The position numbers and the translations under genes were made by a program. A DNA stretch of 64,000 nucleotides from Tubulanus polymorphus (lineage: Eukaryota > Nemertea > Palaeonemertea > Tubulaniformes > Tubulanidae): NCBI RefSeq assembly GCF_964204645.1, contig NC_134030.1:20527110-20591109 (forward strand), given 5' to 3'. This document shows positions 4,543-51,870 of this stretch, one piece after another; position 1 is the first letter of the stretch, and each line of letters starts with the position of its first letter. The notes beneath the pieces were generated by a model. That model worked only from the letters and a program-made list of their open reading frames with translations, was not told the origin of the DNA and searched no databases.

Positions 4543-4576
4543 AACGTTTCGACTATATCCTAATAGTCATCTTCAG
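4543..4576 (-). ncRNA. Hammerhead-ribozyme-like motif, U-type cleavage site
   Basis: On the minus strand the core reads CTGAAGA at 4576-4570, one extra T, a six-pair stem (GACTAT with ATAGTC) and GAAACGTT at 4550-4543. CUGANGA and GAAA are the two conserved strands of the hammerhead core. The palindrome ACGT would give a minimal stem III that is stable only as a dimer. The base after it is T, an allowed but weaker cleavage residue. Stem I pairing is poor, so activity is doubtful. Confidence 0.45.
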
Positions 4577-4906: not shown

Positions 4907-5103
4907 AACCAGTTTACAGAGGAATTTTGATATAAGTTTATTATGGGGTGAAAAACCATTGTTAAGGTTTACAACGTTGTTCGAATTTTCAATAATTAAT
5001 GCAGATTTCAAAAATTATTGAAAATTCGAACAACGTTGTAAACCTTAACAATGGTTTTTCACCCCATAATAAACTTATATCAAAATTCCTCTGTAAACTG
5101 GTT
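4907..5103. repeat. Perfect 91-bp inverted repeat, 15-nt loop
   Basis: The left arm 4907-4997 and right arm 5013-5103 are exact reverse complements with a 15-base spacer. The arms begin AACCAGTTTACAGAGG. Perfect identity implies recent origin or gene conversion between the arms. The sequence following the right arm (5104-5145) recurs in the same orientation at about 17275-17313. Confidence 0.9.
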
Positions 5104-5309
5104 TATTTTACGTCTTAATCAGTTGGATAGCAGGCACAGAGTGTTATGATAATTAGTTACAGTATACACAGAATAGAATCGAATATTATACTACTTGATT
5201 ACTCATACTTCATCAGATCGTAACTGAGATTGTCCTAAAATGACTTTTCTTTAACTACATACTTAATACAAAGGCCTATTTCTACAAACAAATAAACCCC
5301 TGTGAAGCT

Positions 5310-5575
5310 GGCTCCCGGTTCCCGGTTCCTTATTCGGCTCCCGATTCAAAATGCTGTTGAACCGGGAGCCGAATCGGGAACCGGGAACCGGGAGCCGGCT
5401 ACTGGTTCAGCTCCCGATTCAAAATGCTGTTGAACCGGGAGCCGAATCGGGAACCGGGAGCCGGCTACTGGTTCAGCTCCCGATTCAAAATGCTTTTGAA
5501 CCGGGAGCCGAATCGGGAACCGGGAACCGGGAGCCGGCTACTGGTTCAGCTCCCGATTCAAAATGTGAAGCTGGC
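5310..5575. repeat. GC-rich hairpin subrepeats, 66-73 bp
   Basis: The tandem units alternate GAACCGGGAGCCGAATCGGG with its inverse, so each unit can fold on itself. The same units appear at 6600-6770, 14870-14950, 15675-15895 and 16800-17055. Long frames encoding NREP-type peptides here and in those patches come from the repeat and are not genes. Confidence 0.85.
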
Positions 5576-5755
5576 TACTTATTCGCCAGGTGGCGCTGGT
5601 GTACACTGTGCTGTAGTCCAGACATTTCACGTAACTATGTCTACTCTGCTGATAAACAAACTCGACCTCGACCTTGACAAGAAATCGCCAGGTGTGGCGC
5701 GAGCCAATCCAGACGTCTAAACACGATTGCGTATGCGACCGCGAGACTCGCGGTC

Positions 5756-17066: not shown

Positions 17067-18825
17067 CAAATAATCATTAGCCGTCATTTTAGATTAAATA
17101 CCTAATCTATAAAAATTGACTCTCAGTACCAAATGTACGTGTTACATAAAGGTCTGATTTCTCAGCTAAGCCTAGGTACACATTTATGCCAAAACATATA
17201 TAAGATTTAACTATGAAAAATGGATGTAACTCACCTGAAAATTCAAACGATTGAATTTATGTGTTAATACCAGTTTATTTTACGTCTTAATCAGTTGGAT
17301 AGCAGGCACAGAGTGATCAAATCTGTGCTGCCAAAAACCAAGTTGATTAAGACACTCCCATCAAGAAATTATTGACCAAAACTTCTAGCGATTGGTTCAT
17401 CCAAAATTTATTAAGACACTAATTATTTAACATGTTAAGACACTAATTACCTGATGAGAGCTAAACTAGTTGCGAGGGCAGGTGAGTTGAGAGTTGTTTA
17501 TATTGCTATTACATCACTTATTCAAAAATAGTGCCAGTTCGCTAGGTAGACAAAATACTCAATAAACAAGACAGCCTACTTGAGCTGCCAAAACTGTATC
17601 CGGGTAAAAGTGACAAACAAACATAAGTAAACATAAAAACACAATCCGCAGTTCCAGATAAAAATACTCCTTGCTAAAAGTGTATGTGACTATAGCCATG
17701 GATGACCGTGACCGACCCAATGGTACTACGAGAAAGTTATTGCCTGATGTTGATGGTCTAAGTCGCCGCGAACCCTCAGCAACCTGACAGCGAAGAAACT
17801 GATGCAAACTAATTTTCGTTTGATTCTACCTGATAATAAAAATTAAAATAGTGACGGATTATATCTAACTCTAAAAGCGATGACAAAGATCTTTTTTCGA
17901 ATTATCTCTTTCAAAAAATGATGTAATTATTACGAGTCATTATTGTCCAAGTTACGATAAGTGAATGTTAGGCATTATTGTTGAATTCCGTAGAAAATAA
18001 AAAGCCATCACCTGCATAACTTTTGAATTTATCTGAAGCGTTTGAACCCCTTACTTTCTCTTTTAATCTTTACAAACGTGAGATTATTATGTTAAATGTA
18101 TATGTGGCATCTCGTAATTCAATATTGAACGAAATCATCCATCACATTTCCGTTGATGCTATCAATACTGAACTGTTGGTCCATGGCTCCAGCCTCAAAC
18201 CATTAGCTTTAAATGTAATCATTTAAACCACGGTCCAAAATTTGTATATTACTCAAAACGGTTAGAATAAGACATATAGATCATATCACACCTTAACAAC
18301 CATGACATCGAGGGAATAATTTATTTGTTTGTTTATTCATTCATGTATTTATCTATTCTTTTACTCTTTAAAATAGGCTTAATTGTAAACTGATTACTCA
18401 CCTCATCATCTCACCATACATCTCCCTTATCGAAAATTACCACCAAAATAAAAATTAATTTTCAATCAGTACATCCTATGAGTTTCATGCTCCTTATATG
18501 TAACTTACCGATGTATCTTTAGGTAATGTTTCAGGAATAGATAAATTTCATCGTTATTGCAAATCATTTGTAGAACGAATCGATTTCTGTGCTCCAAAGT
18601 AAAATGTACTTGGTTGATCCGACTGGACGCGTGGTCCTTCGGTATTTCTTCTGCTCCACTTGTCGAACATACGTTACCCCCGAAATTATCATCCCCTCAA
18701 TCCATACCGTGCCTGTTGTGTGTCAGCGAGCGGGAATAATGTGAGAGAGTGTCTGGATGACCAAGTAACAGGCAATTTGCTTCATTGGCCCCCTCAATTG
18801 ATATTATAACATTTCATATTGTTCG
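17067..18825. other. Intergenic, little recognised
   Basis: The run TTTTACGTCTTAATCAGTTG and its continuation at 17275-17313 repeats, in the same orientation, the sequence just after the perfect hairpin at 5104. Otherwise I see unique AT-rich DNA. Frames at 17559-17807 and 18023-18226 show no motifs. Confidence 0.4.
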
Positions 18826-23405: not shown

Positions 23406-25570
23406 GAAATTATTATGAAGTTAGGTCGGGTTTAATCTTATCAAACAGACTTTCGTCACAAAGATGCAGCGGAATTTCTCTAAACTCGAATCGTTTTGTA
23501 ACCAGTGATGTATAGTGGGAGTTACGGTGATCATTCTAATCACTCCCGTATTCAAGAAGTATTTTTTGTTTCAATGGTTTTAAAGATCTAATATTTGTAA
23601 ACAAGTAGATAACGATGATGAGACTCGAAAGCATTTGCCATAAGTGGAGTGTCAAAATGTTGGGCAATTTGTCAGATAAAGAAACCTTTGATCTATTCGA
23701 TAAACTTAATGACGAAATATTATCAGTAAAACCGACTTTTTATCAACCGGTTCATTTGTCCAGGACATTCATACAGTATTTTTAGAATAGTCGAGTTAGG
23801 GCTTTTGACTGTGGTCACATATCTTAAGTTTAAAAATTTGTTTAGAAAAATCAGTCTCCCTTGTCTCGCGAAAGTGCGCTGATAAGATATATCGGTTTTT
23901 GTAATTACACAATATTATTTCTGATCGATTCGAATTGTATTGCAAAATTTAGACAGTCCCGCGTGCACACTGTCCCGGTTGAATACATATCGTCCCGCTC
24001 AACACCGTCCCGGTTGAATACACACAGTCCTGGTTGAATACACACCGCCCCGGTTGAATACACGCCGTCCCAGTTGAATACACGCCGTCCCGGTTGAATA
24101 CACGCCGCCCCGGTTGAATACACGCCGTCCCGGTTGAATACACGCCGTCCCGGTTGAATACACGCCGTCCCGGTTGAATACACGCCGTCCCGGTTGAATG
24201 CACGCCGTCCCGGTTGAATACACACAGTCCCGGTTGAATACACACCGCCCCGGTTGAATACACGCCGTCCCGGTTGAATACACGCCGTCCCGGTTGAATA
24301 CACGCCGCCCCGGTTGAATACACGCCGTCCCGGTTCAATACACGCCGTCCCGGTTGAATACACGCCGTCCCGGTTCAATACACGCCGTCCCGGTTGAATA
24401 CACACCGTCCCGGTTGAATACACTCCGTCCCGGTTGAATACACACATTCCCGGTTGAATACACACCGTCCCGGTTGAATACACACCGTCCCGGTTGAATA
24501 CACGCCGCCCCGGTTCAATACACGCCGTCCCGGTTGAATACACTCCGTCCCGGTTGAATACACTCCGTCCCGGTTGAATACACACAGTCCCGGTTGAATA
24601 CACGCCGTCCCGGTTGAATACACGCCGTCCCGGTTGAATACACGCCGTCCCGGTTGAATACACACCGCCCCGGTTGAATACACGCCGTCCCGGTTCAATA
24701 CACGCCGTCCCGGTTGAATACACACCGACCCGCCTGAATACACACCGACCCGGTTGAATACACACCGTCCCGCCTGAATACACGCCGTCCCGGTTGAATA
24801 CACACCGTCCCGCCTGAATACACACCGTCCCGCCTGAATAGACGCCGTAATTTCTAATAGACACTGTATAATTTTATTCTTTATTTCAGATAAACGAAGG
24901 GAAGAGGTGGAGATGCTTGATCAGAACGAGGTGGTCAGCTCACCGAACGCAAAGAACAACTGAAATGGAGCACTCCGTATCAGACAAACATTAAAAGAAG
25001 TGTAATTTCATTAGTTAACACCTTCAATATACAATGAATCTTCATTCTTATCTAATCTTATGTTTGTGGATTGTTTCTTTTGGGCCAATGTTGGTCAGCA
25101 AAAGAATGATCAACAAATCCAATTCTGAGACAAGTATTTGGCGTTTTCTTAGGGGAACGTTCTACTAATACCGTTGTTCCCCAAGTAGTGATTCCAACCA
25201 TCATGATTGCATAATCTGGAGATGTGCACGGTTTTGTAAATACGAGCCCGTGAGAAATTCAAGTATTACTTAAATCCAAGACAAATCCTAAAAAATTCTC
25301 TTCCCAAGATTGAAATTATTCCAGGAAATTTGATTTGATATTTGGCCGAGATATTACGCCCAATGATAGCATTCTCAATGGCATTTCACGAATTTGATAA
25401 TGAAATTGTAATGATGTAATGACATCACTAATTGTTCTAAGAAAATGTTGGCGTCAAGTAAGAAGCATTGTGACATTAATAAAGATTGTGCAATGTAGTA
25501 CTTTGTCGATCATATATTGTAGACCGCAGTTTGTACTTGATGTACAATAAACTTTAAGTAAATTACTATC
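20307..25570 (+). ncRNA. Candidate spliced long non-coding RNA (plus copy)
   Basis: Exon-like blocks are 20307-20530, 22789-22914, 23004-23231 and a terminal block from 24890 to about 25570 with AATAAA at 25546-25551. Internal blocks have pyrimidine-rich TTTTTAG, TTTTTCAG or TTTCTAG acceptors and share the donor GGTGAGTAGA. Each of the three internal blocks opens with a diverged CCTGATTGCTGC motif, so they look like duplicates of one exon. No frame stays open across them or between the plus and minus copies, and indels are not multiples of three. Splice sites and poly(A) signal are retained while reading frames are not, which favours a non-coding RNA or a dead gene. The first exon is unknown. 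A frame in the terminal block (DKRREEVEMLDQNEVV) is not kept in the other copy. Confidence 0.4.
23950..24845. repeat. 20-bp minisatellite, about 45 copies
   Basis: The 20-base unit is CACGCCGTCCCGGTTGAATA with small variations (CACACC, CACTCC, GGTTCAATA, CGCCTGAATA). Since 60 is a multiple of 20 and of 3, all minus-strand frames stay open for hundreds of bases. The frame at 24864-23905 and its companions are therefore repeat artefacts. The array sits in the last intron of the candidate RNA, ending about 45 bp before its terminal exon. Confidence 0.95.
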
Positions 25571-28366: not shown

Positions 28367-28773
28367 AAATAACGGGGACGATATGAACATCTTGCAAGTT
28401 CACAAAAAATATTTTGTAGTGGCAATACAGTCGTCCTCTGACCTACGATAGACTTTTGAAGTTAAATCAATGTTTTTTACACTCTGGCGTAATATTAATC
28501 GTTGTTGCTCGGTCGGATGATTGAACACAGTTAATATTATCCAGCGCACAACAGTCGCCACATTACCGATATTCATCCAGTATTCCTGTTCCGTCGATAT
28601 GGACTGTGCGGCTACGTATAATCCTGGACTCGAGTCCATGGTATGATGAGGGACCTGCGATACAGCCTTTTTTTTCTTGCACATCCGCGTTCACGCCTCA
28701 CCGAGAGCTCCGGTCAAATTGAACAATGCCTAGAGAGTATATTTCCACATTCATATGAATTATTTACCAATAT
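28367..28773. other. Intergenic, no recognised feature
   Basis: Lectin-like 3' UTR runs for a short distance, then unique sequence. I saw no gene. Confidence 0.35.
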
Positions 28774-28911
28774 TAAGATAAAATCCCCCTAATTACAAAT
28801 TAAAATAATTCTAAAATCGAGAATTTATTTATTGAAACAATCTAAAATATATGAACACGACGTTTCGATCTCACCCTAGAGATATCTCTCTTCGACCGAT
28901 GTTGCACCATA
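28774..28911 (-). mobile_element. One-armed relic of the hammerhead-containing palindromic element
   Basis: It begins TAAGATAAAATCCCCC like the other copies and has the arm block AATCGAGAATTTATTTATTG, then on the minus strand the core GATCGAAACGTCGTG. The CTGACGA strand is replaced by TCGAAGAGA, and the second arm is missing. Its arm sequence is closest to the copy at 39796-40000. Confidence 0.6.
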
Positions 28912-32900: not shown

Positions 32901-34912
32901 CTCGCAGCGTTGGTTCAGTCAGCCTCGTGGTATTGGCAGCATCGCGGATTTAGATGAATCCGCACCGATTATTAGTCTTGACGACCTTGATCAAACTACT
33001 GTAGCCAACGCGTCGCCCATACAACACGACATTGGGGAATTTAACTAATTTGCTAAACGATTGTTACAGTAAAACTAAGCCGGTGTTTCGAATGAAACCT
33101 AAGAGGCCACGACAGGATAACAAGATTTGGTTTGGCCCCGAATGTAAGTGTAAAAGGCTCGAATACCAAAAAAATCGTACAAAAGATCCGCGCGGAAATA
33201 TAAGAAACGAAGTTCCATAACGATCTACGATCCCAGTCGAATAACCCGAGAAAATTCTGGTCGATGTTGAACAGAGATCAGATGAATGGAGACGAAAGTA
33301 ACATCGACATCGAAACGCTGACGAAACACTTCGAACAATTAAACTCTACTGATCATACAGACATAGAAGACGAAATCATCATTCCGCCCGAAACAAATGC
33401 CCAAATTAACTGTCCGATAAGTGAGAGTGAAACACTCAATGCAATCAAGAAACTCAAAAACAATAAGGCCGTCGGTATAGACTCAATCCAAAACAAACAA
33501 TTAAAATTTAGTAGCGAAAAAATGTTATCCCTATATACAGAATTTTTCAATTTAGGTCTTGAAACGAGGTTAGTTCCAGAATCATGGGTAACAGGAAGAA
33601 TTAAGCCATTGTATAAAAATAAGGGTAATCGTCGTGGTCCGGACAACTACCGTGGCATCACTTTGCTGAGTTGTGTGGGTAAATTATTTAAATCGATTGA
33701 ATGCACGTTTAAATGAGTATTCCGAAAGCGTGCGGTTGTTAAACGAAAATCAGGCTGGTTTTTGGAGAAAACATTCTACCGCAGACCATATTTTCACACT
33801 AAAAGCACTTGTGGATATCGTAATAGCCTACAAAAAATCGTTCTATTGTTGCTTTGTGGATTATAAAAAGGCGTTGATACTGTGCCCCATTCTGAACTAT
33901 GGTCTACGCTCATGAAAAATAATTTGGACGGAAAAGTATTTACAGTTATCAGAAATATGTATAGTATCGCGAAATCTTGCGTTTTTGATGGTAATGAATA
34001 TTCGGATTTCTTTAGTTGCAACATAGGTGTCAGGCAGGGCAAGAATTTGTCACTTCAGAATCGCTTCAAAAATTTAGAACTTTTCCCGTATGGTTTTAAA
34101 ATGGGTGACGAAATAGATGAGTTGGTTAACATGCTCAAATTGGCAATCCTTTTGTACGCTGATGACACAATAATAATGTCAGACAGTGCTAAAAATCTAC
34201 AACAAGGACTCAATTGTTTAGGCCAATATTGTGCAAAAAATAAGATCGCGGTCAATGTGAGAAAAACATATATATATTATTGTTATATTCAATAAAGGAA
34301 CCAACAAAACAAATGAATTACTACAATTCACGCTTAATAATGAAACTGTTGAAGTCACCGATCAGTATCCGTACCTAGGTATCATATTTAAAAAAATGGT
34401 AATTTCGCTTAGACTAGAAAGAATTTATATGACAAAGCACAGCGCGCCATGTTCGCACTGATAAATAAAACTAGGTATCTCAAATTGCCTCTAGATATGC
34501 AATTTAAGTTGTTTGATGCACTAGTTACACCAATAATTCTATACGGATCCGAATTATGGGGGTTTGAGGACACACATTCAACCGAACTTTTACATTTAAA
34601 ATTTTAAAGTATGCAATGAATTTGAAATCGACAACTCCTTCTGTTATTGTGTATGGTGAAACAGGTAGATTACCATTAAACATTCAGATAAAACTACGTA
34701 TGATTAATTACTGGTGCAAAATGGTAACGTGTAAAAAAATTCGAAAATCAATTAAATAATGTATGGTATTTTGTTCAATCTGTATAGAAATAACCAACTT
34801 AGCTCAAAATGGATTGAATCCATTCATAACATATTAAATGATTGTAACTTAGGTTACGTATGGACGATCCAAGATCCAGTAGATGTCAATGGTTTAAATA
34901 ATTATATGAAAA
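32901..34912 (+). pseudogene. LINE ORF2, 5' part (reverse transcriptase), frameshifted
   Basis: In successive frames the sequence reads through the linker (WFGPECK), the RT fingers (AIKKLKNNKAVGIDSIQNKQ, then GNRRGPDNYRGITLLSCVGK), the palm (GFWRKHSTADH, FVDYKKA), the catalytic LLYADDTIIMSDSA block near 34150-34190, and the thumb and connection regions (GSELWGFED). At least four frameshifts or stops make it inactive. The reading resumes at 37488 after an inserted element. The element lies in the right arm of the inverted duplication and is absent at the matching place near 20.57-20.64 kb. Confidence 0.85.
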
Positions 34913-39056: not shown

Positions 39057-39795
39057 TTTAAGTTTATTGTTCCACAATTAATACTTAATGCACGGAGCAC
39101 AGAGTAGTTTACAAAATAATAACAACAGCATATTACACTATTGATACCAAAAAAGTTACAAGATGGAATATCGCAACTTTAAACATATGATGATAAACCA
39201 TTTTTAACAAATAATGCGAAATCACTCAAGACTTTACTTGTAGAATTTATAAAGTCGTGAAAATTGGCCTCGTAATCTCCAAAAGCGAGCGTGGATAAAT
39301 TTTAGACGTATATCCGAAAGATGTGCAATTTGATATGTATTGTAGGCTATACAGAATTCCTCGCATTGATAACAACAAAAACGTTGAAGTGATTCTGAAT
39401 TTCACCTTTTCTTTCGCGCGTTCAAAGTCAAATCGACACTTTTCGATGGATTTACGTGACCAATTTCTGGCTGCCGATCAAATCTGCGATAACAATTTGA
39501 AGACTGCCTTGATATGAACTATTATGAATAGTGAATCTTGTTCAGATGCCTTTAAAGTGGTATAAGGATGGTAATTTCGAGGAAAAACTGCAGTAACGTA
39601 TGATATATTCAAGTGAAGCAGAAAAAATCTACCGAAGGATTTCTTGTTGACCAATTTCTGCAATGCACTGCTGTACTTATCTACGCTCAAATGGAGTAAC
39701 GTATGGATAATTTTATTGTGTGTATCTGGGTCCAAAGTTGAGAAATCAAGAGGTCGGTACGATAACCACACTACAACGTGGTGAACAGATGATAC
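39057..39795. other. Intergenic, no recognised feature
   Basis: No conserved frame, splice pattern or repeat was found. Confidence 0.4.
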
Positions 39796-40000
39796 GATAA
39801 AAACCCACCATTTAAAAATTAAATGAAATCTATAATAGAAAATATAAGAACACGACGTTTCGATCTCACACTATCTCACACCCGACGATGATCTCTAGTG
39901 TGAGATCGAAACGTCGTGTTCTTATATTTTAGATTGTTTCAATTAATAAATTCTCGATTTTAGATTTCTTTTAATTTTTAAATAGTGGGTTTTTATCTTA
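39796..40000 (+). mobile_element. Palindromic element with mutated hammerhead-like core
   Basis: The ends GATAAAAACCCACCATTTAA and its inverse near 40000 are inverted. The arms hold AACACGACGTTTCGATCTCA on the left and its inverse on the right, so nearly the whole unit folds back. The central core reads CCGACGA at 39892-39898 (canonical U4 changed to C), stem GATCTC..GAGATC and GAAACGTC at 39908-39915. The change should kill ribozyme activity. Confidence 0.7.
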
Positions 40001-41165
40001 AAATCAAGAGGTTCTTTCTTTCCGACTTTTCTTCCGTTGTGTGGAAGCCTAGCACAATAAGCAATTTAGTTTAACCGCCCACAAGACGCGGGCCCAGCCT
40101 TTTGTCGAGTTTAAAATGAAAATTCCCTCGTTTTAAAAAATCTAAAGGTGATTTCATACTAAGGGATTCTAACCCTTTAGACAAATTCAAAAGATACAGG
40201 GGATGGCTTTTTACTATCTGCGTTATTTAACAACATTGCCTAAAATTCACTTATATCGTGACTAAACCAATAATGATTCGTAATAATTACTATGATTTAT
40301 GAAAAAAAACTAGAATGAACGGTTTGATCGCGAATTCTAGAAATAATTAGCAGCAGCGGAATTGGTCCATAATCAGAAAAAAAGATCTTTGTCATCGATC
40401 CTAGAATCAGATATTTTGATTGCTATTTGGATTAATATTATTATCAAATGATTATTGGTTTGCATAGGTTTGTTTGCAGGCAATTGGATCATTAGATTTA
40501 TCGCCCAATAAGCTGTTAGTATCACCAATGTGTACGCCATGGTCATCCATTTCATACGTAGGCTATAATGAAAAACAATAAACCAAGCATTAAGTTTCGA
40601 TCATCCGTGAGTGAAATATCGAACTAGGTACTAATCCGGATCGGTTTGATACCGATTTTCAATTATTCCAATTACATCCCAATTATAATACTATTGTAAA
40701 GACCACTACAAACAAGTCATAGCCAAATTAATCCTGCCAAAGAAATAAGAAATTGTCAAAGAAATTGTATTTCAGAACAGATCGGAACATGTCATGAGCT
40801 ACAACTTAATTTGCAAATAAATGTGGACCTTACAAAATATGAATATTTACAAAACATGCATAGGTGCCAGTTGTGCGAATCCGATAGTTCGGCAGTCTTC
40901 AACTCCTTCCACGAGTCATTTTGATTGAAACAACAACTGAGATTTCGAGATGCTCCCTGAAGAGGTTTGAGTTACTTTGTCTAGCCCATCCTAAAATTGG
41001 AACTGTGATTGTTCACGCCATATTATATAACTTAATCCACATTTATTCAGGATGCGTTCAACATTGATTATACATTTAGGATGATAATGACCTTAAGAAG
41101 AATTTTGATTTTGTTCACTTTGTTTTAGTCAACACAGCTAACCATTCTTGCCAAGTAACTTTTAA
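40001..41165. other. Intergenic; one small hydrophobic-start frame
   Basis: The only thing seen is a minus-strand 60-codon frame at 40555-40373 starting MKWMTMAYTLVILTAYWA, which looks like a secretory signal. It has no splice donor after it, no relative in the window and an unlikely mature part. I do not call it a gene. Confidence 0.35.
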
Positions 41166-41169
41166 TATT

Positions 41170-41440
41170 CCTCTATTAACATATATTTCAACTGGATGCT
41201 CTATATACTCTATTAGAGGGCGGTATTATTTTCAAGCCTAACATATGTCTTATGGATTTTAGATGTAGCCTTTCAAAACATTTATAATACTCAAAACCCC
41301 AAAACTTACAGCAACTACAGGAACTATACAGCACAATAGGTAGGACTGGCTTTACAAGTTCAAGTTGGAGGTCGATAGGTAAATTCAATGATCTAAATCC
41401 ATGCAAAAGCCCGAACATTTGTGCATGATCACGTATTTGG
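41170..41440 (-). pseudogene. LINE ORF2 fragment (post-RT region)
   Basis: On the minus strand it reads MFGLLHGFRSLNLPIDLQLE and later FWGFEYYKCFERLHLKSIRH, matching the region after the reverse transcriptase (compare LINKTRYLKLPLDMQFKLFD and GSELWGFED in the LINE at 34.45-34.57 kb). It is broken at both ends. Confidence 0.7.
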
Positions 41441-41706
41441 ACTATTGCTTGAGTAAAGTTACCGTTTTTTTTAAATGTAACGCCGATATTTCAATTTGTT
41501 CAAGTTATATTTCGCTTGAATCAAATTGGTGACATGGCTTTTTGTTACAGCCGATGAAAATAAGAAGCTTATTGTTTTGCATAAGTTGAGTGATGATTTG
41601 TTTATCGTACTGTACTCATTTAAACAACTTTAGCACTTCTATATCTGCTCAGCTGATTCGGTATACCTTGGAGTGATCATTTGAAATTAATGGTAGAACG
41701 ATATGA

Positions 41707-41920
41707 TAAGATAAAAATCCACTGTCTACAGATTAAAGAATGTCAAAATCAAGAAGTTTATTTATTCGAACAATCTTAAATATATAAAACACACCTGACG
41801 ATGATCTCTAGGGTGAGATCGAAACGTCGTGTATTTTATTTATTTTAGATTGTTCGAATAAACAAATTTCTTGATTTTGAAATTCTTTTAATTTGTAGAT
41901 AGTGGGTTTTTGTTTTATAT
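41707..41920 (+). mobile_element. Palindromic element with intact hammerhead-like core
   Basis: The inverted ends (TAAGATAAAAATCCACTGTC and the inverse GATAGTGGGTTTTTGTTTTA) are diverged from each other. Inner arms TTTATTCGAACAATCTTAAA and its inverse flank a central ribozyme-like core at 41795-41828. It encodes no protein. It is a second member of the family at 39.8 and 49.85 kb. Confidence 0.75.
41785..41838 (+). ncRNA. Hammerhead-ribozyme-like motif
   Basis: CTGACGA lies at 41795-41801, one extra T, then stem II GATCTC with GAGATC around TAGGGT, then GAAACGTC at 41821-41828. Stem I is strong: CACAC upstream of CTGACGA and GTGTA after the predicted cleavage C41828 pair at 1-4, mismatch at 5, and pair again for five more A-U pairs. 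Stem III is only the palindrome ACGT, as in Penelope and retrozyme-type hammerheads that cleave as dimers. The extra T before stem II departs from the textbook fold, so activity needs testing. Confidence 0.6.
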
Positions 41921-42231
41921 TCCAAGGTATGCTGTGTTATCAGCATATGCCAATGTAATAAGTTTTAATTAGCATGACATTAATCAGTATTCTCCCCCAT
42001 TTTAAAACCGCATGGGAATCCTTAAGGTTGGAACAGCCATTATGAATCTAAATAGAATTATTCAAAGTCATTTAAATACACTACAAATAAAAATGAATAA
42101 ATCATGGATCTGAATCATAAGTCAAATACTGTCCATAATACAAATAATGTCCAAATCGACCGCATTTGATTTCGCAGGATTATTGTTATGTTTTTAGTTT
42201 CAAGGTTAAAAGAACTTACCGGGACCGGAAT

Positions 42232-45200
42232 TTACTGCTGAGCCATTGTATAATGAGGCTTTCTATTCAGCGCTGAAAATTTTAAATAATACAACTTTCT
42301 GCAGTTACTGAAAATCGGTATCAGATCGAAGACAGGTTTTTTAAAAGAACTCACCGCAACAGATACAGTGACATAGCTCATCCTGTGTATCGCCCGATGG
42401 AGCTTGTTTTGTGCAGACGACTGTAAGTGAAAAACAAAAGATTATTTTATTGTGCAGTAACTTCACCTTTTTCCTTTTGATAATGGGCCTTTCATAAGTG
42501 CATTGATTTTCAACTTCCCTATGTTTTTACCGGTACGTGATATTTGAATTTCGCTGATTATCAATACGCAGGGAGAAGCGTCCAATTTCCATGGAACTTA
42601 CATTCGCCAATTCTACATGGTTCTTTAACATTAGGTTTTCTTGGCACCACTGTTATTAGAAACAATACAGCATTTTATATCAGTAGTTTGTCGTTCATAG
42701 TTTTTCAGATTTAATGATGGTTTCATGTAAAACTTACAGTAGCGACAACGCCGCATTATAAACAGTACTATCAGAATCGGTAATATCAGTATTCCGATTA
42801 CAACACCGAAAACCATTCCTCCAGTCCATTCTTCTGGAATTGAAATTTAGACATATCAGCAATTGGATTAAATCATATAGAGCTGGAAATAATTCTGTTG
42901 TAAGTAATGAGCTAAGTAACAGCAATTAATTTCGAAGCCAGTAATGGCAGTATAACAACCCAGCAACAAACTCTATTGCTCAATTCCCTTTAGCAGGAAC
43001 TAATAATAATCGAATCTAAATAAGTCAGTATTTGGATACATTGTATGCGCAAGCAAAAATAGATGTTTCGTAACTTTTGGTATTTGTGACAAACATCCAT
43101 CGCGAGCTCATATTAATTCATCAAAAGGAGGAAAAGTAAAATCCGGTTCATGAATGGTTTGGGTCTTACCCGTTTCATCTGTTCTTGTAGAAATCGGACT
43201 GATTGGAACATTGGAATGATAACCAGCGACATCGATAACGCTTTCATTTTTATTGTCTGCCAGACACCGCCCTCTATAGTCAGTTGTGGTTCTATCTACA
43301 ATTGGTATCGTTATGCTCCACTGATAGTTTGATAGTTTTTGAACGACAGCTGGAGGGTCACATGTAACTTGTTGAGTCAATGGGTTACTATTAACTGTAA
43401 CAATATACACTGCATTTGTTTCATTTTCGCTGCCTCTCTTGAAATCGGGTCTAAAATCTGAAGGAGAGAACAAAAAAAAATTGAAAACATAACATGCAGG
43501 AACTTATGTCATAGTAAACAACGTTCATCCTCACAAGGACAGATTCGAGCTTGATTACATTGCCAGACAATGCACCGTTCTTCCGAGAATGGACACAAAC
43601 TTAGAGGAAATTTTCCTGATACGTTTTCCAATTATCATGATATACGATGAGTTACTATTATCTCGGGCGACGCTCCCGGAGTTTGGTAATGCAGCCCGAA
43701 GACGGTGGTTAACTCAATCTAAAGCTAAATACTGGCATAATTCTGATAGCAAACAATTACCGTGAGGAAAAGTTAAAACCAAATTTGATATCGTCGTTAA
43801 CTACAATGACAATAATCTGATCAAATTGAAAATGTTTCGCATCAGTAGTGTTTTACTAAACGGCGTTTTGAAATATGCTCCGAATTTGAACAAGTTTAAC
43901 TCATCTCGGCGTATAGTGCAGGTTAAACTGATGGCATCGTGAAAATTTCAGGGTTGATAGAAATTCAGAAAGATTTCTAAAATACGACAAATAAATCTGT
44001 TACTTACAATGAACAATGATTGGATTAAATTGTCGAGGTTTCGGATACGTTAGGTTCTCCTTTACAGCACATCGAAATGACGTTCCATTGTGCAGATTGA
44101 AATAGGCTTCAAACTGGTACGTGGTGTTGAAACCCCCCTCGACAGGTTCTCTTTGAGGTTGTGGATCAGGAATTGGCCCCCATTGTTCAGAACCTCTTCT
44201 TTTCTGTTGGTATATAACTGTAGGATCAGGTCTACCACCTTCTGTTCTACAAGTATATTGTACATCTTCTCCTTCGTTTCTTATTTCGGTGAAGTTACCA
44301 CTTGCCTGGATCACGTGAGGAAAGTCTGAATAGAAATAAGCAAACCTCTAGTACGAAACTGCATATCAACCATTGAACAGCAACTCACAATCTGATAAAT
44401 CTCAGGCACGAGCTGTACGAAAATTATGAGATTTTTCAAATAATAATTAGTTACTCCAACACTAGGTTAAAAGAATTTTAGTCGTCAGACCGCTGCAGAA
44501 TTTTCCCGAATGCGTCATCTATTGGTGATGACTAATCAGAAATATTGGAGAAATGAATTTCAAAAGTCCAGGCAGGTTAAATTCAAACATAAAATGAAAT
44601 TTAAAAATATATATGAGCTAGTAGAAAATTAGGTTTGGTAATCATGATTTTTCAGGTTGAGAAATTTGAGGGTATTTGGTCCTAGATGAACACCCCTCTT
44701 AAATGCATCAATACAATTATTCAAGCTAGCCTGTAAAGAGCATTTCAGTTGTTATCGGGTATCAAACAATTTAACTCTCCGATGGAAATTTCAAAACTTA
44801 CACGTTACGTCCATTCTATTTTGATGTTCTATTCTATGTGCTAGTTCTATATTGTTATACGTTACCAAACGACACTGAATAGCATCTGCATAGATCATAC
44901 TCAATGGTTCTATCTCAATTGTGTTGATAACTTCATTATTCACAATAGCTGAGTGAGCTTGCTTTGGACGTTTGACTAGCAAGAATTTATTTCGATTAGT
45001 TTCATCGAATCCGTTAGTGTACCATTTCACTGTCATAGCTACATTACCAATCTTACTAACGACTTTACAAGTGCAAGCTAAAGATTGGAATTGAGCCAGC
45101 TTACACGGGTCTTCAAGTATGTTTATGCCTAGAGATAGATATAGAGATGTTAATAGTCAAAACTTAGAAAATGCGATTGATCTAAAAAATTACTCGAGAA

Positions 45201-46897
45201 ACATAAAAAATAGACTATATCAAGAGCTTACTAATTCTAAAAATAGAAAGGTGACAAAATGAAACATTTATCAAAATCGGGGGATGAATACAAAATAAAC
45301 GACGATGTATATTTGTACCCTACTTGTAACCTACGAAGGTTTATTCCTAGAGATAGATATAGAGATGTTAATAGTCAAAACTTAGAAAATGCGATTGATC
45401 TAGAAAATTACTCGAGAAACTCGAGAAAAAAAAAGCTTACTAATTCTAAAAATTGAAAGGTGACAAAATGAAACATTTATCAAAATCAGGGGGGATTAAT
45501 ACAAAATAAACGACGAATCTCTAAACAGTATAGATATACATTTGCTTCTGCCGGTAATGAAGAGGCAAGATCGATAGATCCTTACATATTGCCTATTTGT
45601 AACCTACTTGTAACCTACGAAGGTTTTAAAGGCAATATGTAGGGATCTGCCTACCTTGCCTCTTCATTGCCGGCAGAAGCAAATTGACATTGGCGCGAAA
45701 AATCTTCCCTAGAGAAATGTTTCTAAATGGTTGTATTTCAAAGGCACTTCGGGGCTATGCGAACATAGTTTTCGCTGGTGTCATGATTCAATATTGAGTC
45801 ACTTTGTTTACGAAATTGGTAGCTTTTTTTGCACGATCGCAAAACACGTTTTCGGTGATGGCTGAGGTTTTTGAATAACTTTCAAGAAAAAATTATCATC
45901 ACAAAATCATTGTCAATAACCCTAGATAATCTTTTCCTACTAACAGCCATATAATTATGAGTCGGGACACTCAGGTGGTTATCCAGGCCGAAATAGAAGT
46001 TAGTTCACCTTATATATTTTAGCAACAGAATCTGGTTTCCTTCATCTGTAACCTGACGCCACATTTTTATCGATGCTGAACTGTAAGCGTTCAAACTGGG
46101 GTTATGGGCAGAATTGTCATCATTTAAGAAAAACTGTTTAACTCCATTCTGCTTGAAATGCATTTCCACGTAGAAGAAGCAGTCTAATACTCACTGATTA
46201 CATCCGATTGGTAGATTTTACTGTCTTTCGTTTCTTCTGAATTTTTGGCCAAACATTTATACTGTTTTCCAACCTCAGGTACAATTTTCCACACTGTCGA
46301 TACACCGGTAAGAGGTAATGGAGTCCAGGTCCCTCCTGCTCCACTGTTCACTTGGAGCTGGAATTCTACACCAGTCGCTGCAATGTTGCCTTGTCTACAA
46401 GTAATACTAACATTTTTACCTTCTTGTGCCAGTAATATATTTGTACCCGGTAATACATTCACACTGTCCAGGACAACCCCATCAGGTGCTGAAATATTAA
46501 AGTTAAAAGGATTTATATACAAGTGACCATAATTTCACATAGTCATAACGGCCTACTCTCTGCATTACGCGGCTATTGGATGATTTAATGTGTACGGTAC
46601 TTCTTTTATAACCATGAATATAGACACGGAACCTGCCATCGTCCAGGTTCGAATCCATGCGAGGGAGGAATGTGGCAGAGTCTTGCGATGTAATCAGCTT
46701 CAAATCTATACGCGGAGGAAATGATAGAGTTTCAAGATGCCATCAGTTGTGAGAGAGGAGGAATGATTGCTATTTCAGTGAATGTGATCTTACTTACGTG
46801 AATTAAAGTTTGTCCAGTTAAGTTGTCCAGCTACAGTGTTATAGCTCACCAACAGTAAAACTGCCCAGGCATATACAATATGACTAAAAATCATCAT
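42232..46897 (-). CDS. Immunoglobulin-superfamily transmembrane receptor, four Ig domains
   Basis: Nine coding exons: 46897-46798, 46488-46195, 45128-44802, 44325-44008, 43457-43170, 42833-42738, 42649-42602, 42420-42355 and 42272-42232 (stop TAA). All junctions are phase 1 with GT..AG borders, giving 525 residues. Residues 1-24 are a signal peptide (MIFSHIVYAWAVLLLV). Four Ig-like domains follow, one per exon, at about 34-131, 132-240, 241-346 and 347-442, each with a Cys pair (for example SITC/QYKC and YTCR/FRCA). N-glycosylation sites include NWT, NVS, NFT, NGT and NLT. A membrane span lies at about 448-470 (GVVIGILILPILIVLFIM), then RRCRYC. The tail is short and Cys-rich (ECFVC, LCHCICC). 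A cell-surface recognition role is inferred from architecture. The last exon is the least certain, because a donor-like CCG/GTAAGT follows its stop. Exon 5 can also be read through its donor for about 20 codons to a stop. Confidence 0.75.
45120..45500. repeat. About 220-bp tandem duplication in the receptor intron 2
   Basis: TAGAGATAGATATAGAGATG followed by TTAATAGTCAAAACTTAGAA occurs near 45130 and again near 45350, each followed by a copy of AAAGGTGACAAAATGAAACA. The first copy starts at the acceptor of exon 3. Confidence 0.75.
45531..45690. mobile_element. Foldback element in the receptor intron 2
   Basis: TTTGCTTCTGCCGGTAATGA at 45540 and the inverse of TCATTGCCGGCAGAAGCAAA ending near 45684 are long inverted ends, continuing inward with GGCAAGATC and ATATTGCCT pairs. 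It has no coding capacity and is a MITE by structure. Confidence 0.75.
46620..46770 (-). repeat. Degenerate copies of the 50-bp unit in receptor intron 1
   Basis: On the minus strand GACTCTGCCACATTCCTCCC followed by TCGCATGGATTCGAACCTGG is the unit that forms the large array at 1043-1967. About three diverged copies are recognisable. Both Ig genes therefore carry it in intron 1 in the same orientation, and one expanded. Confidence 0.8.
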
Positions 46898-47820
46898 TCC
46901 TTTTCTCTTGTTTATACCTATGGATTATATTGCAAGTACTTCACATTTACACTCAAATGAATATCTTTCAATTAGGCCACACGGACTCAAACCATACTCA
47001 ACCAGCGCGACTTATTTTTAAAGTTTTCAATATCTTTATTCGAATAAAAGTTATAAAAATAAAGCCTATTGATCACAATGTTTCCAAGTGTCTAGAAAAC
47101 AGGCTTATATTGTTTATTTATTTATTCATTATAGTGACATGTGTAATATAAATACATATGATGTGAGTCAATCACCTTAACCTGCAACCAGCCCAAAGGT
47201 GGACTTACAAGTCCCTCTATACACAACACAGTTGGTATAGGTTAGCCAACCACAGTTCTTTTTATAGAATGCAGAAATACAAAGGTACAAAAAAATAAAA
47301 CAAAAAAAAACAAATATTTTCTATTATTACCCTTCTTGCCCTCCCTCCAATTCATTTCGTTAGGCCTATGCATACATCTTTCATACGGATCAGTTATGTG
47401 TGATATTCATGCACATGGCCCGAGCCGAGCGTGACCCATTATCCTTAATATGTATAAGACATCTGAATGCATCAAAAAATGTATTTACTCATATAGATTA
47501 ACTTATGAATATTCAATCATTTCGGAGGAACCATTTTCTTGGACACACTGTATAGTGTTTGATAAGCTTGGTCGTCTGTTATTTCTACGTGAAAATCCCT
47601 TCTCTCTCGGCTATTCCTGACCGTGACACTTATGAACTAACCTGACTGAATAACGCGTTTAATCCGCGCCGATACTGGCGACTTGCGAGGTGATAAACCG
47701 GATATATCCGAAAAATTCGCCATTAGCCGCCTGATGTCACTGGAAATCCAATCATGCAACGCTACATAATTAACATATCCAGCTGACCAATCACGTATCG
47801 TAAATTTTTCAGTCCGCAGA
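46898..47820. other. 5' flank of the Ig receptor, no other gene seen
   Basis: The receptor promoter must lie here, but I see no convincing TATA or initiator. An A-rich run occurs at about 47285-47320. Nothing else was recognised. Confidence 0.4.
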
Positions 47821-47824
47821 GGCC

Positions 47825-47832
47825 GTGACGTC
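47825..47832 (+). promoter_or_regulatory. Full CRE palindrome TGACGTCA
   Basis: A perfect cAMP-response element lies 9 bp upstream of the candidate start codon at 47842. Full CREs are common in broadly expressed promoters close to the start site. On its own an 8-bp match is weak evidence. Confidence 0.3.
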
Positions 47833-47841
47833 ACACCATCA

Positions 47842-47922
47842 ATGGCGGCAAAGCGATACAGTGAAGAAAGGGAGAGATTTATTCCGAGAAATGTACGCAG
47901 TAATCCTAGTATCTCCAAATAC
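47842..47922 (+). CDS. Candidate first coding exon, product unknown
   Basis: An ATG in a good context (ATCAATGGCGG) opens 27 codons beginning MAAKRYSEERERFIPRNV and ending at a consensus donor, TAC/GTAAGG, in phase 0. A full CRE lies just upstream. The charged N-terminus looks like a cytosolic or nuclear protein and resembles nothing else here. No continuing exon is visible on the plus strand in the remaining 16 kb, so either the intron is very long or this is a chance frame. It would be divergent from the Ig receptor. Confidence 0.3.
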
Positions 47923-48780
47923 GTAAGGTTTTTAATTGATCTATTTAAATGAACATCCTACACTAGTACTAGATAGATTCATAGTTAAGCGTGAGTCGGT
48001 TCATTTATTTCTCTATAGATATAATCAATACATACGTAAGAAGACCTATTTCTACTACCCGTGATTGAAGTAATATCAACATTTATCTTTGTATGATTAT
48101 TCGTCACCTTTGTTCTAAATATTGTTTTATAATCTTAACCCCTACCAGCGGAAAAGGATATCCCATATCAATTGAATTTCTTTCATCCACACCGTAGCAT
48201 CAATCACCAAAGACTGAGATAGGCACTTGGGTGAAAAACTGAAAAAAAAAAATTTCTAACCCATCCTGACCCCCCCCAACACGCCCCCCCCCCCTACAGA
48301 AAAGGCTGTTGGTATGATTTTTTACTGATTTTCACTAAATAACATCATAATCTTCGATAAAAACGCGAAAAATCGGGGTTAAAAACAATTTGAAAAAAAT
48401 CGAATTTTTCGGAAAATACCTTACGTAGGGGGCGGTGCAAGCGTGTACGCAGCGAAAGGGTTAAATGACCGAAGAGATATTCAAAAAAAAAGATTTTTTT
48501 TGTAATTTTGACCGGATCCCGGTGAAGCTTGTACGCGGGCACGCAATGAGGAAAAACGGCTGTCCCTATAGAGCCGCGAAGTCCATATAAAAGATCCCCT
48601 TTTCGGGCGATTGACCTTGGAATCTTCTCCCCAAGACTTTTGTTTAGAATGTGGTGAAATTGTGACCATATTTCATTCCTAATTTTCAACCAGGAAAGTG
48701 CTCAGAATGCAAATAAAAGCATCTAAAATTTCAAAATTACCTGGAGGAGGGTGCGTTAGTAGTAACCCAATATTCGATGT
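47923..48780. other. Intergenic, no gene recognised
   Basis: A short C-rich low-complexity run occurs at 48268-48295. Minus-strand frames at 48345-48689 share no motif with known families and have no splice or start support. Confidence 0.4.
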
Positions 48781-49321
48781 GCGTCTCCTATTCCAAAAGC
48801 TAGATCCACCGCTGCTGCAGAAAACCCCTTATATAAAGTAGCACAACCTGTAATGATGATTATGACAAGCCAGCAGGTTACACGTATTTAGAAAAAGCTG
48901 AGTTATTTCCAAAAGTTTGAAGTTGTGTGGATGTTATTTTCATACCGCTGCAAGTAAAACGTAATCAGACTTAATTTGAATAGTAATTTTCTTTAATCGC
49001 GCTTTTCCAGTTTTGCACGCTTGCAATTAATGAGTTGAAGTCCCGGTTCGAATGCCATATTTTTCGTTACCAGTTTCAGGTTCAGTGCTCTGGAAAATAC
49101 TAACAGTGTCCAATACGGTAACGTCCTGGGGATAATAAAATGAAAATCAAATTTTGAATAAAAAATCCTATTTTTGATTCAAAAAATTCCCAGGACGCTT
49201 CCGTGCTCCAATCATCCATCCGTGTAACAACAAAATAGGTCGACAAAGTGATTAAAAACATAGATCCAACAAGAAGTCTATCGTAGGTCATAAGACGACC
49301 GTATCGCCGCTACAGAATAGA

Positions 49322-51870
49322 TTTATTTTCTTTTTTTTCAATACCGAACAAAATGTGAATTCGTGATAATATCGTAGTGAAGATGTTCATATCGTCCCCG
49401 TTCGATTTCTACTGGCAGTCCTTCGAACAAATAGCTGGTTTCTGATTCCGGCATCCAATATCGTTCCACTCACCACTACCTCCATACATTTCAACGCAAC
49501 GTTCGATACTAGAACCACTCGGCTGTCTGGGGGCCCATCTCGTGTAATTCTGCAAACAGGTAATAAAACAACTTCGTGCGGGCTCTCTAAAGGGTGCATT
49601 AGATTTTGAAGGGGTACACGACGGTCGTACCCCTCCGCCTCTGTGTTCGCCAAGATGTTTTTGTGTGTTAAAGACCGGTCACAAGCACGCGTACAGGCCA
49701 GAACAAGAGGCACCCATACACGCTCTTACTTACGTAAACAGTTCATGTAGATTTCGGGACCACACCTTACAGATGACCTTACTGTTCGCTAGATGGCGAA
49801 CTAGTCGAAGGTTGCTACTCTAACTGCACTATGGCATGTAAGATAAAATCCCACTATTTACAGATTAAAAGAATTTAAAAACCAGAATAGACCTGACGAT
49901 GATCTCTAGGGTGAGATCGAAACGTCGTGTCTTTTAAATATTTTAGATTTAATAAATAAATTCTGGTTTTTAAATTCTTTTAATCTGTAAATAGTGGGAT
50001 TTTATCTTATTATCCGTTCACCACGTTTGAGTGTGGTCATCGTTCTACTAGGGCATGCTTTAGAGCTGTCTTACAGTCGTTGAAATGGCCAAACTGATAG
50101 ATTTTTGTGAAATTTTCTTTGCTTTTGGAAAAATTGCCTAAAATTCCCCACATCCCGCCAACTGAAGGGAGGGTCGATCGAAGCTTCGTTGATGTGTACA
50201 TCGATGTTATTCGAGAGAATATTTCTAGAAACGACGAACTTACCGTTGTTAAGGTAAGCGATGGGCGCTGTTTCCAAATACCGAGCCAAACAGACGGCAC
50301 GTCATCGGGTATAAGACCTAAAATGACGACATTATTGTTTAAGTTAAAAAACCATGATCGCCAATCCCCCGTATAAAACGGCATATTCCATACACACTCC
50401 GGGCTACATTATTTTCCTCCAAGCTATCGATTCTGGCTAGTTTCGAAGTCTCACAATGTTGGCGTTGCGGCAAAATTTCCGGAAAAAACTTGAAGCATTT
50501 CGTGTTTCCAGCCGGGGTCCAACCGTCATCACAAACACACGCTAAAACTATATATACATCCATACGACACAACGATTAGTATCTACAATAGGTTAACCGA
50601 AATTTCCCCTTTGATCAACTATATATTTCCTATTTTATTCTATTTCACGCAACCCTGCTTCTATTGGATTTCAGATTTTCTATTGCATAAGATACGTATC
50701 ATAGTTTGCTTTGCTTCAAATAACTTCAGTTTGTAACTTTTCTGAGCCCGAATCTTGTATCAAATCTTATAATTAGATAAGGCTTATATTGTTCTGGTCA
50801 GTTTATCCATTATCTAATATCTCTCGAGTTTTTTTTTCATTATTTCGAGTGCATTGCTCAAAATAATCGTTTTCTGCGCAAGTTTTCAAAGTTGCGACGT
50901 GACAAATGGCAGATAATATCCCAAAAACGCGGTTAAAGCTGCCTGATAGCTATATTAATAAGTGACAACTATAATGGTATATTCACCTGCCGTTGTAGAA
51001 CAGACCAGTAACAGAGTCGATATTATCAGCTTCATATTCGACGGGTCAACGTTTTTCTCTTATCTGAAACTAAAGGCATTGATATTTTTAGTAGCTTGCC
51101 TTAAGAAAAATATGTGAAAATATGGGTCTTTTAAAGTTCGGTTTTGCTCCATAAGTTTCGTTTTGCGTTTTCCTATAATCGAGGTCACTCATGTAAGAAT
51201 TATTGCATATCACCCTTATCAGCCACCATACTTATGTGCGTAGCGTACGAACTATAAATATTGATTGTGTCGAGAATCAATCAGGGAACTACGGAAAATC
51301 ATCATGGCAGCGCAATGATAATTTATACTACGGATTTGTTCATACCTCACAGCAAAATCATCCCTATAATATCAGCGTAATTAGCATTTTTTATAAAGTT
51401 ATCTTTTTCTAATTTGTTTTTGCCAAGAAAGAAATCACGAAATTCAATGAAATTTCGATTCTGTATCTAATCTTTTATTTTTCCTTTTTTCGATCGGTTG
51501 CCAGTTAATTCGAAGCTGAAAAATTCGATACCTAGGTTCTGATCTCTGCTGAGATTTTAAGTTGACCCGGCCGACCGCCCATACGTGTTATATCTTAAAC
51601 CGTGTACATTATTTTAAGAAAATATTGATCAAGTTTATTACCATAATAGACCTGGCAGTTATTGGTATGAACTTCTTGCAAATTTTATTGCAGTTTACAA
51701 AATGACCCGGCCGATTAGGAGAAACAAAGTATCATTTTTGATTGCCAAATATTACATTTCTTATTAAATCTAGATTAAAACGAATCGGATAATTGGAAAA
51801 AATGTGTGAAGCTATAATCAAAACATTTCGTTTGCGAAATCGTTTAATCGCCAGTATAACTTAACTTACC
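49322..51870 (-). CDS. C-type-lectin-domain protein, secreted (cluster copy 1)
   Basis: A 5' UTR exon ends at 51870 with GTAAGT. Coding exons are 51035-50987, 50547-50398, 50317-50244 and 49549-49409 (137 residues), with junction phases 1, 1, 0. AATAAA is near 49327. Residues 1-16 are a signal peptide (MKLIISTLLLVCSTTA). The CTLD follows: CVCDDGWTPAGNTKCFKFF, QHCETSKLARIDSLEENN, VWLGIW, then ERCVEM, EWNDIGC and PAICSKDCQ. Six canonical-position Cys plus a final Cys fit a long-form CTLD. The sugar-specificity motif is QPS rather than EPN or QPD, so Ca-dependent sugar binding is uncertain, although WND is kept. The intron after exon 2 is only 80 bases. Intron 3 hosts a hammerhead-containing element. 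Exons read intact, so it is probably functional. Confidence 0.8.
49840..50009 (+). mobile_element. Palindromic element with 50-bp perfect ends and hammerhead-like core
   Basis: The left arm 49840-49889 and right arm 49960-50009 are exact inverse copies (start TAAGATAAAATCCCACTATT). The centre holds CTGACGA at 49893-49899, stem GATCTC..GAGATC and GAAACGTC at 49919-49926. It lies in intron 3 of CTLD copy 1, antisense to that gene, so the plus-strand ribozyme sense would not be in the lectin pre-mRNA. The perfect arms suggest it is the youngest copy. No target-site duplication is obvious. Confidence 0.8.
49888..49932 (+). ncRNA. Hammerhead-ribozyme-like motif in CTLD intron
   Basis: The core is identical to the one at 41795-41828. 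Stem I is weaker: C-G, A-U, a G-G mismatch, A-U. The predicted cleavage follows C49926. Activity would again require dimerisation through ACGT. Confidence 0.55.
51660..51730. repeat. Dispersed block shared with 21730 and 31310
   Basis: TTTTATTGCAGTTTACAAAA followed by TGACCCGGCCGATTAGGAGA matches the blocks near 21730-21830 (inverse) and 31310-31420. Three copies in unrelated settings make it a transposon piece of unknown type. Confidence 0.5.

What the first reader, a model, noticed from the sequence alone, without database searches (positions are those of the whole stretch)
39796..50009. Family of palindromic elements with a hammerhead-ribozyme-like core at the centre
Four members (28774-28911, 39796-40000, 41707-41920, 49840-50009) share TAAGATAAAATCCCACTATT-like ends and inverted arms, and all but the one-armed relic at 28774 have the same centre: CTGACGA, a six-pair stem and GAAACGTC. 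Two cores are intact, one has U4 changed to C, and one has lost the first strand. Known hammerheads of this minimal-stem-III type sit in Penelope-like elements and retrozymes. A MITE-like foldback unit with the ribozyme exactly between long inverted arms looks different. A transcript could be a long hairpin whose loop cleaves itself, or could dimerise through ACGT.
Basis: partly seen in the sequence, partly recalled or inferred. Interest (0 to 1): 0.8.

Follow-up and report, generated by a model that had tools for sequence, protein, structure and literature searches.

The report
Two-ended Penelope retrotransposon insertions, ribozyme-centred
The palindromes with a hammerhead-like ribozyme in the middle are short copies of the start of a Penelope-like jumping element, apparently copied inward from both sides of the broken DNA, and their ends suggest that each side uses a different fixed starting point on the RNA.

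Summary
In detail: three hammerhead-like cores between inverted arms, plus one relic. It is not a MITE. I read 170 copies of the family from the same 268-Mb genome. Some continue upstream into a Penelope-like (PLE) ORF; the repeat is the PLE's pLTR, with a 36-nt tail on one side, between target duplications of mostly 10-14 bp. The ribozyme is central because it lies at the RNA's 5' end, where two cDNAs from the two target strands often stop and are joined. In 26 of 26 independent copies chosen without regard to the tail, one arm starts beyond the tail and the other just before it; 0 of 121 two-armed copies have two tails. A second PLE family gives the same in 5 of 5 palindromes. In 47 of 112 copies the tail-less arm reaches further by 20 nt or more, which fold-back priming cannot give. 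PLE hammerheads, inverted pLTRs and the two start sites are published; one site per strand was not found in what I searched. Copies do not conserve the ribozyme, and 3 of 286 arm ends fall at its cut site.

The parts
49833..49838 (.). left target duplication of the 49.8-kb copy (GGCATG; ACTAxGGCATG if one mismatch is allowed)
   Evidence: for GGCATG; longer form read
49839..49888 (-). tail-less arm, started at the inner site and reaching reference position 74
49891..50047 (+). tail-bearing arm, reference positions 5-161, with ribozyme and tail
49893..49927 (+). intact hammerhead-like core
50012..50047 (+). 36-nt tail with the AC-rich stem-loop (CACCAC...GTGTGG)
50052..50057 (.). right target duplication of the 49.8-kb copy
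39743..39754 (.). left target duplication AAATCAAGAGGT of the 39.8-kb copy
39757..39873 (-). tail-bearing arm of the 39.8-kb copy (tail about 39757-39790), reaching reference position 21
39876..40000 (+). tail-less arm of the 39.8-kb copy from reference position 1 to the inner site
   Evidence: match runs to 40005
39882..39916 (+). hammerhead-like core with U4 changed to C
40001..40012 (.). right target duplication AAATCAAGAGGT of the 39.8-kb copy
41691..41794 (-). left arm of the 41.7-kb copy; a tail with its hairpin missing seems to lie at its outer end (TAGAACGATA)
   Evidence: the tail remnant is read by eye
41795..41923 (+). right arm of the 41.7-kb copy with intact core 41795-41829; no target duplication found
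28774..28883 (-). single tail-less arm, relic
   Evidence: match 28745-28883

Best explanation
The palindromes are insertions of a Penelope-like element, family A here, made by target-primed reverse transcription from both sides of a staggered cut. The RNA is thought to start at TCACACC, 29 nt after a TATA box, so the ribozyme occupies its first 44 nt. Reverse transcriptase starts inside the RNA at two sites that bracket a 36-nt AC-rich stem-loop (the tail): an outer site (reference position 161) and an inner site (about 126). The 3' end of one target strand primes at the outer site, that of the other strand at the inner site. Both cDNAs head for the RNA 5' end, often reach it, and are joined there, often at short shared sequences; this puts the ribozyme in the middle and makes the two arms. 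Shown from sequence: PLE identity, fixed outer ends, one-sided tail, target duplications, variable inner junctions, ends piled up at the TCACACC start. Inferred: the transcription start, the enzyme's part, the order of the two strands, and that usually both cDNAs come from one RNA or from RNAs of one source copy (in a minority from two).
For: PLE: translation of L067 gives a GIY-YIG-like segment; a search with it finds 150 listed matches, at least nine of which lie on the same strand about 170-260 nt upstream of a tail listed or 34 (for example C3:12537948-12538259 and tail C3:12538488); L175 (558 aa) has RVT_1, and family B L176 (841 aa stop to stop) has RVT_1 and GIY-YIG; A and B are 57% identical over 548 aa. 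Tail: 686 places with up to 2 mismatches, 0 for the reversed pattern. Ends: of 30 loci picked by arm similarity alone, 26 independent ones all have one arm ending at 151-161 and the other at the inner site, 123-141 by BLAST; among all 121 independent two-armed copies 112 have the tail-less arm ending at 119-145 (mode 126), 9 end shorter, 0 have two tails. Family B: 5 of 5 palindromes end at 1095-1098 on one side and 1132-1139 on the other. Target duplication of 8 bp or more, exact, in 89 of 117 two-armed copies against 0.22% in shuffled pairings. Against fold-back: in 47 of 112 copies the tail-less arm reaches at least 20 nt further than the tail arm, 22 the reverse, and the two reaches are uncorrelated (Spearman -0.08); 5 tail-less arms run on into the PLE 3' region. 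RNA start: 138 of 286 arm ends lie at positions 1-5; TATATATA begins 29 nt before that point in L175 and before the 988 end in family B. Two templates in a minority: 7 of 45 well-kept pairs differ at two or more of 8 subfamily sites.
Against: 44 of 140 tail-selected loci have no detected second arm. In some of these the left end may lie outside the 500-600 nt fetched, but others, such as L039 with a 14-bp duplication, look one-sided, so priming from both sides is not obligatory. Nine two-armed copies have a tail-less arm that ends short of the inner site; they were not examined one by one. The 2024 in vitro study of an Anolis PLE reports no difference in start site between the two strands (PMC11167929). 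Ends were mapped with BLAST, so each carries a few nt of uncertainty. No RNA data were available. The symmetric target motif is clean only if the TA that the tail shares with the target is counted as target.
Confidence: 0.8

Rival explanations
1. Fold-back priming: the 3' end of the first cDNA (or of an antisense transcript, as proposed for rotifer Penelope elements) folds back and primes the second arm on the first.
For: Arms of one copy are much more alike than arms of different copies: 40 of 550 subfamily-site comparisons differ against 37% in shuffled pairs. In 36 of 126 two-armed copies both arms end within 9 nt of each other. PMC3846280 (passages) argues for self-priming from palindromes at inverted junctions.
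Against: A folded-back copy cannot hold sequence that its template lacks. In 47 of 112 copies the tail-less arm reaches at least 20 nt further than the tail arm while the tail arm alone holds the tail; each arm then has sequence absent from the other. The reaches are uncorrelated. 7 of 45 well-kept pairs mix subfamily markers.
Confidence: 0.08
2. LINE-like twin priming in which both target strands copy one and the same RNA molecule, one after the other.
For: Most arm pairs agree at subfamily sites, and many junctions share short sequences (by eye).
Against: The region between position 1 and the inner site is copied twice, so the first cDNA would have to be displaced; 7 of 45 well-kept pairs carry markers of two templates. 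The rate expected from mutation alone was not modelled. As I recall it, LINE-1 twin priming gives inverted parts that do not overlap.
Confidence: 0.3
3. A MITE-like or foldback element of its own, inherited as a unit, with a working ribozyme at the tip of a long hairpin.
For: The units are short, numerous and palindromic, and the ribozyme sits at the centre.
Against: The junction differs from copy to copy; the tail is on one side only; target duplications are 10-14 bp in 71 of 83 copies; the same sequence forms the 3' region of a PLE with an ORF; the core decays no slower than the arms.
Confidence: 0.03
4. A retrozyme-type element that spreads through ribozyme-cut, circularised RNA.
For: Hammerhead of type I in a short repeated unit; three arm ends fall exactly at the predicted cut (position 41: L041, L056, L058).
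Against: The copies contain the ribozyme uncut and begin at its 5' edge; 3 ends at position 41 against 1.0 expected from the other internal ends, P = 0.08, and 138 ends at positions 1-5; no tandem head-to-tail arrays with the spacing of the unit were seen in the loci read; the ORF belongs to a PLE.
Confidence: 0.04

Closest known systems
Poseidon PLE of Anolis carolinensis (PAc), Frangieh et al. 2024, PMC11167929 (read: parts 1 and 2 of 4 of the text, plus searched passages)
   Same: GIY-YIG plus RT; both target strands cut and extended; RT starts at two internal RNA sites that bracket the tail and lie in an AC-rich stem-loop; hammerhead near the ORF start with ATG at the start of stem II; uncut RNA is the main template.
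   Different: There no start-site difference between strands was seen in vitro. Here the two sites are used one per side in all 26 independent arm-selected copies and in 5 of 5 family B palindromes. The target motif here is AAC/GTT-like, not ATT.
Penelope families of the rotifer Adineta vaga, Arkhipova et al. 2013, PMC3846280 (passages only)
   Different: That paper reads the inverted repeats as self-priming, probably on antisense RNA; the copies here contradict this for many insertions. No hammerhead is mentioned there (0 occurrences in the search of its text).
Minimal type I hammerheads of PLEs and Terminons (passages in PMC6155905 and PMC7229834; the 2014 original paper was not seen)
   Same: Type I order, almost no stem III, location in the pLTR.
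   Different: Nothing in principle; family A has in addition a competing fold that pairs GACG with CGUC.
LINE-1 twin priming (recalled; listing of PMC2837659 only)
   Same: Both target strands prime, the insertion is flanked by target duplications, and one part is inverted.
   Different: Here both arms start at fixed RNA positions and overlap in sequence.

Membership tests
Penelope-like element (EN-containing) | ORF with RT and GIY-YIG domains | tested here: met
   Family B ORF: RVT_1 and GIY-YIG above cut-off. Family A L175: RVT_1 above cut-off, GIY-YIG not reported by Pfam at E <= 0.001, but 57% identity to B over 548 aa that include that region.
Penelope-like element (EN-containing) | pLTRs in direct or inverted arrangement and an optional one-sided tail of 30-40 bp | tested here: met
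   Direct pLTRs with identical hammerhead sequence at L176:997 and 3855; inverted pLTRs in 121 of 165 independent family A copies; tail of 36 nt on one side.
Penelope-like element (EN-containing) | target duplication of variable length | tested here: met
   89 of 117 two-armed copies, control 0.22%.
Minimal PLE hammerhead ribozyme, type I | CUGANGA and GAAA core with paired stems I and II | tested here: met
   Two intact cores in the window; families A and B keep the core while 6 of 10 stem pairs change on both sides, 40 of 40 cells paired (four sequences, in effect one comparison of two families).
Minimal PLE hammerhead ribozyme, type I | self-cleavage | not testable with these tools
   Needs an in vitro assay. 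No Rfam hammerhead match. Arm ends at the cut site are not significantly enriched.
MITE or foldback DNA transposon | inherited terminal inverted repeats and short fixed target duplication | tested here: not met
   Junctions differ between copies, the tail is on one side only, duplications range from 6 to 15 bp.
Retrozyme | monomer bounded by ribozyme cut sites, circular RNA | tested here: not met
   Copies start at the 5' edge of the ribozyme, not at the cut: 138 against 3 of 286 arm ends. Circular RNA itself could not be tested.

The most novel reading that the evidence does not exclude
PLEs can insert by paired two-ended reverse transcription with a division of labour: within a dimeric complex on a twofold-symmetric AAC(N10-14)GTT target, one target strand always primes at the RNA site outside the tail stem-loop and the other always at the site inside it. 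The one-sided tail, the inverted pLTRs and the palindromes long noted in PLEs are then one and the same signature of how the second strand is made.
Probability: 0.55. Interest if true: 0.7.

Novelty: new member of a known kind. Interest (0 to 1): 0.5.

Why it matters
How PLEs complete insertion is described as unknown in the 2024 study (PMC11167929). Hundreds of young palindromic copies in one genome act as natural end-point records of that reaction. They suggest one start site per target strand and argue against fold-back priming for many insertions, and both claims can be tested with the existing in vitro assay. They also show why a ribozyme can sit at the centre of a palindrome without being a new kind of element: it is at the RNA 5' end where the two cDNAs meet.

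Tried and rejected
Rfam scans gave no hammerhead match; the high-scoring matches at 39.8 kb are microRNA-type models fitting any long hairpin, all below gathering score. A tandem PLE array on contig C75 (spacing about 4,494 bp) turned out to be repeated surrounding DNA with one old copy per unit, not a head-to-tail PLE array. A test for ribozyme-cut templates (excess of arm ends at position 41) was not significant: 3 of 286 ends, expectation 1.0, P = 0.08. A first arm-concordance estimate on 72 pairs (28 of 318 differing) was replaced by 121 pairs (40 of 550). Self-priming, MITE and retrozyme readings were considered and rejected as told under the rivals. The first description of the target motif as AAC/GTT weakened on the left side when the tail overlap was taken out (left flank then reads about AAYA); no genomic background for these motifs was computed.

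Dropped rows: L011, L016, L017, L020 and L122 as segmental duplicates of other loci. One search's duplication count (117) was made before this drop. Listed places not read: 10 of the 40 scored, 16 of the 100 listed (of 686 counted), and those not named below. L187 of family B has a second match on the other strand that is cut off by the end of the fetched stretch and was not judged.
Full report
Observation. The long core pattern with up to 3 mismatches is found three times in the window and in none of 100 shuffles. At 49.8 kb the arms are 50 nt and identical; at 41.7 and 39.8 kb they are 90% and 85% complementary over about 60 nt.

What it is. A search of the window's own genome (G000, 267.8 Mb, 77 contigs) with the 49.8-kb palindrome lists 102 matches in 40 scored candidates out of 1,417 first-look candidates. 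One end of each copy carries an extra conserved sequence, ATCCGTTCACCACGTTTGAGTGTGGTTATCGTTCTA, called the tail below. A 32-base stretch of the tail occurs 686 times with up to 2 mismatches, and its reversed control 0 times. Reading 80 places around tails showed that some copies continue upstream of the ribozyme into a reading frame with the GIY-YIG-like segment CGVYKIPCFGCDKIYFGETSRDLKTRISEHKKD (L067). A search with this segment lists 150 matches: one family at about 84-98% identity (A) and another at about 59-66% (B). At least nine family A matches lie on the same strand about 170-260 nt upstream of a tail listed. L175 of family A has an RT domain and L176 of family B has RT and GIY-YIG domains. 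The two proteins are 57% identical over 548 aa. L176 carries its hammerhead twice, in direct pLTRs at 997 and 3855. So the repeat is the pLTR of an endonuclease-bearing Penelope-like element.

The ribozyme. Families A and B share CTGANGA, GAAA and CGT at the same places. Of the ten pairs of stems I and II, all are paired in all four sequences aligned, and six change on both sides between A and B. This is in effect one comparison between two families, but it fits a selected structure in the source elements. In the inserted copies the core departs from the majority base in 4.2% of cells against 2.25% for the rest of the repeat, so the copies do not keep it; CpG loss may add to this. The lowest-energy fold of a family A monomer is not the hammerhead but a hairpin pairing GACG with CGUC (-16.3 kcal/mol); family B folds into stems I and II.

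How the palindrome arises. I mapped 170 family A loci on one real copy (L046; position 1 = the T of TCACACC, predicted cut after 40, inner boundary near 126, tail end 161). Thirty were picked by arm similarity without the tail (L001-L030) and 140 by the tail (L031-L170). After dropping five segmental duplicates, 121 of 165 have two arms; before that, 96 of the 140 tail-selected loci did. Among the 26 independent arm-selected loci, all have one arm ending at 151-161 and the other at the inner site (BLAST puts the latter at 123-141, the higher values being flank letters that happen to match, as the target duplications of L007 and L008 show). Over all 121, the tail-less arm ends at 119-145 in 112, ends shorter in 9, and there is no copy with two tails. 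Family B was read at 20 places: 5 are palindromes, and all 5 end at 1095-1098 on one side and at 1132-1139 on the other.

Both ends lie in duplicated target DNA: 89 of 117 two-armed copies have an exact duplication of at least 8 bp against 0.22% of shuffled pairings; with letters shared with the tail taken out, 71 of 83 measure 10-14 bp. The three letters after the right duplication are GTT in 24 of 84 and those before the left one AAC in 18 of 84. This would be a twofold-symmetric target. The caveat is that the left side reads about AAYA when the tail's own TA is left out, and no background was computed.

The inner junction differs from copy to copy. The tail-less arm reaches at least 20 nt further toward the RNA 5' end than the tail arm in 47 of 112 copies, the reverse holds in 22, and the reaches are uncorrelated (Spearman -0.08, P = 0.38). 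Five tail-less arms even run on into the PLE 3' region. An arm made by folding back on the other could not contain sequence the other lacks, so two separate reverse transcriptions are needed in these copies. Arms of one copy usually match: 40 of 550 comparisons at 8 subfamily sites differ, against 37% for shuffled pairs and 3.4% at other sites. In 7 of 45 well-kept pairs two or more subfamily sites differ, which suggests two RNA templates; the rate expected from mutation was not modelled, and the alignment of L092 has gaps.

Why the ribozyme is at the centre. Of 286 arm ends, 138 fall at positions 1-5, 40 at 6-14 and 104 at 15-118. Position 1 lies 29 nt after the first base of a TATATATA box in L175, and the 988 end of family B lies 29 nt after its own. 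I infer that the RNA starts there and that both cDNAs run off its end. Nineteen forward and five inverted arms read through into the PLE 3' region, so longer RNAs also serve and the ribozyme is not an absolute stop. Only three ends lie at the cut site (P = 0.08), so uncut RNA is the usual template. The same was concluded in vitro for the Anolis PLE (PMC11167929).

Limits. Of the tail-selected loci, 44 of 140 show no second arm; some are long copies whose left end may be outside the fetched stretch, but some look one-sided, such as L039 with a 14-bp duplication. Two-ended insertion is therefore common, not obligatory. No RNA data were at hand.

Compared with what is known. PLE hammerheads of minimal type I are known (PMC6155905, PMC7229834; passages). 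Inverted pLTRs with a one-sided tail and target duplications are known from rotifers and were read as self-priming, probably on antisense RNA (PMC3846280; passages). The two internal start sites that bracket the tail, and cutting and extension of both target strands, were shown in vitro in 2024, with no strand difference in start site (PMC11167929; two of four parts and passages). The pairing of one site per strand, and the use of long tail-less arms to exclude fold-back, I did not find in six searches of the open-access library. The library lacks most subscription papers and preprints, so this is no proof of absence. The object is thus a new member of a known kind; the mechanistic reading is the part of interest.

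Noticed in passing
window 4475-4930 (-) and 5080-5103 (+): Fragment of the second PLE family (B), about 98% identical to L176, with a short piece in the opposite orientation beside it.
   Followed up: partly
window 33204-34295 (+): Reverse-transcriptase reading frame in two pieces; the second piece matches RVT_1, and it was not hit by the PLE proteins, so probably another retroelement, perhaps a LINE.
   Followed up: no
window 24005-24848: 20-bp tandem array, 42 copies, 92% matches, with long open frames on the minus strand.
   Followed up: partly
window 5306-5677 (+) and 16647-17073 (-): Two repeats in opposite orientation whose frames read LPVPGSLFGSRFKMLLNREPNREP-like units.
   Followed up: no
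L068, L125, L135: Three copies whose second arm begins at reference position 36-42, about at the predicted ribozyme cut, instead of the inner site; possibly copies of the cut-off 5' leader, but too few to judge.
   Followed up: no
G000 contig C75: Repeated unit of about 4,494 bp, each with one old family A copy and surrounding DNA.
   Followed up: partly
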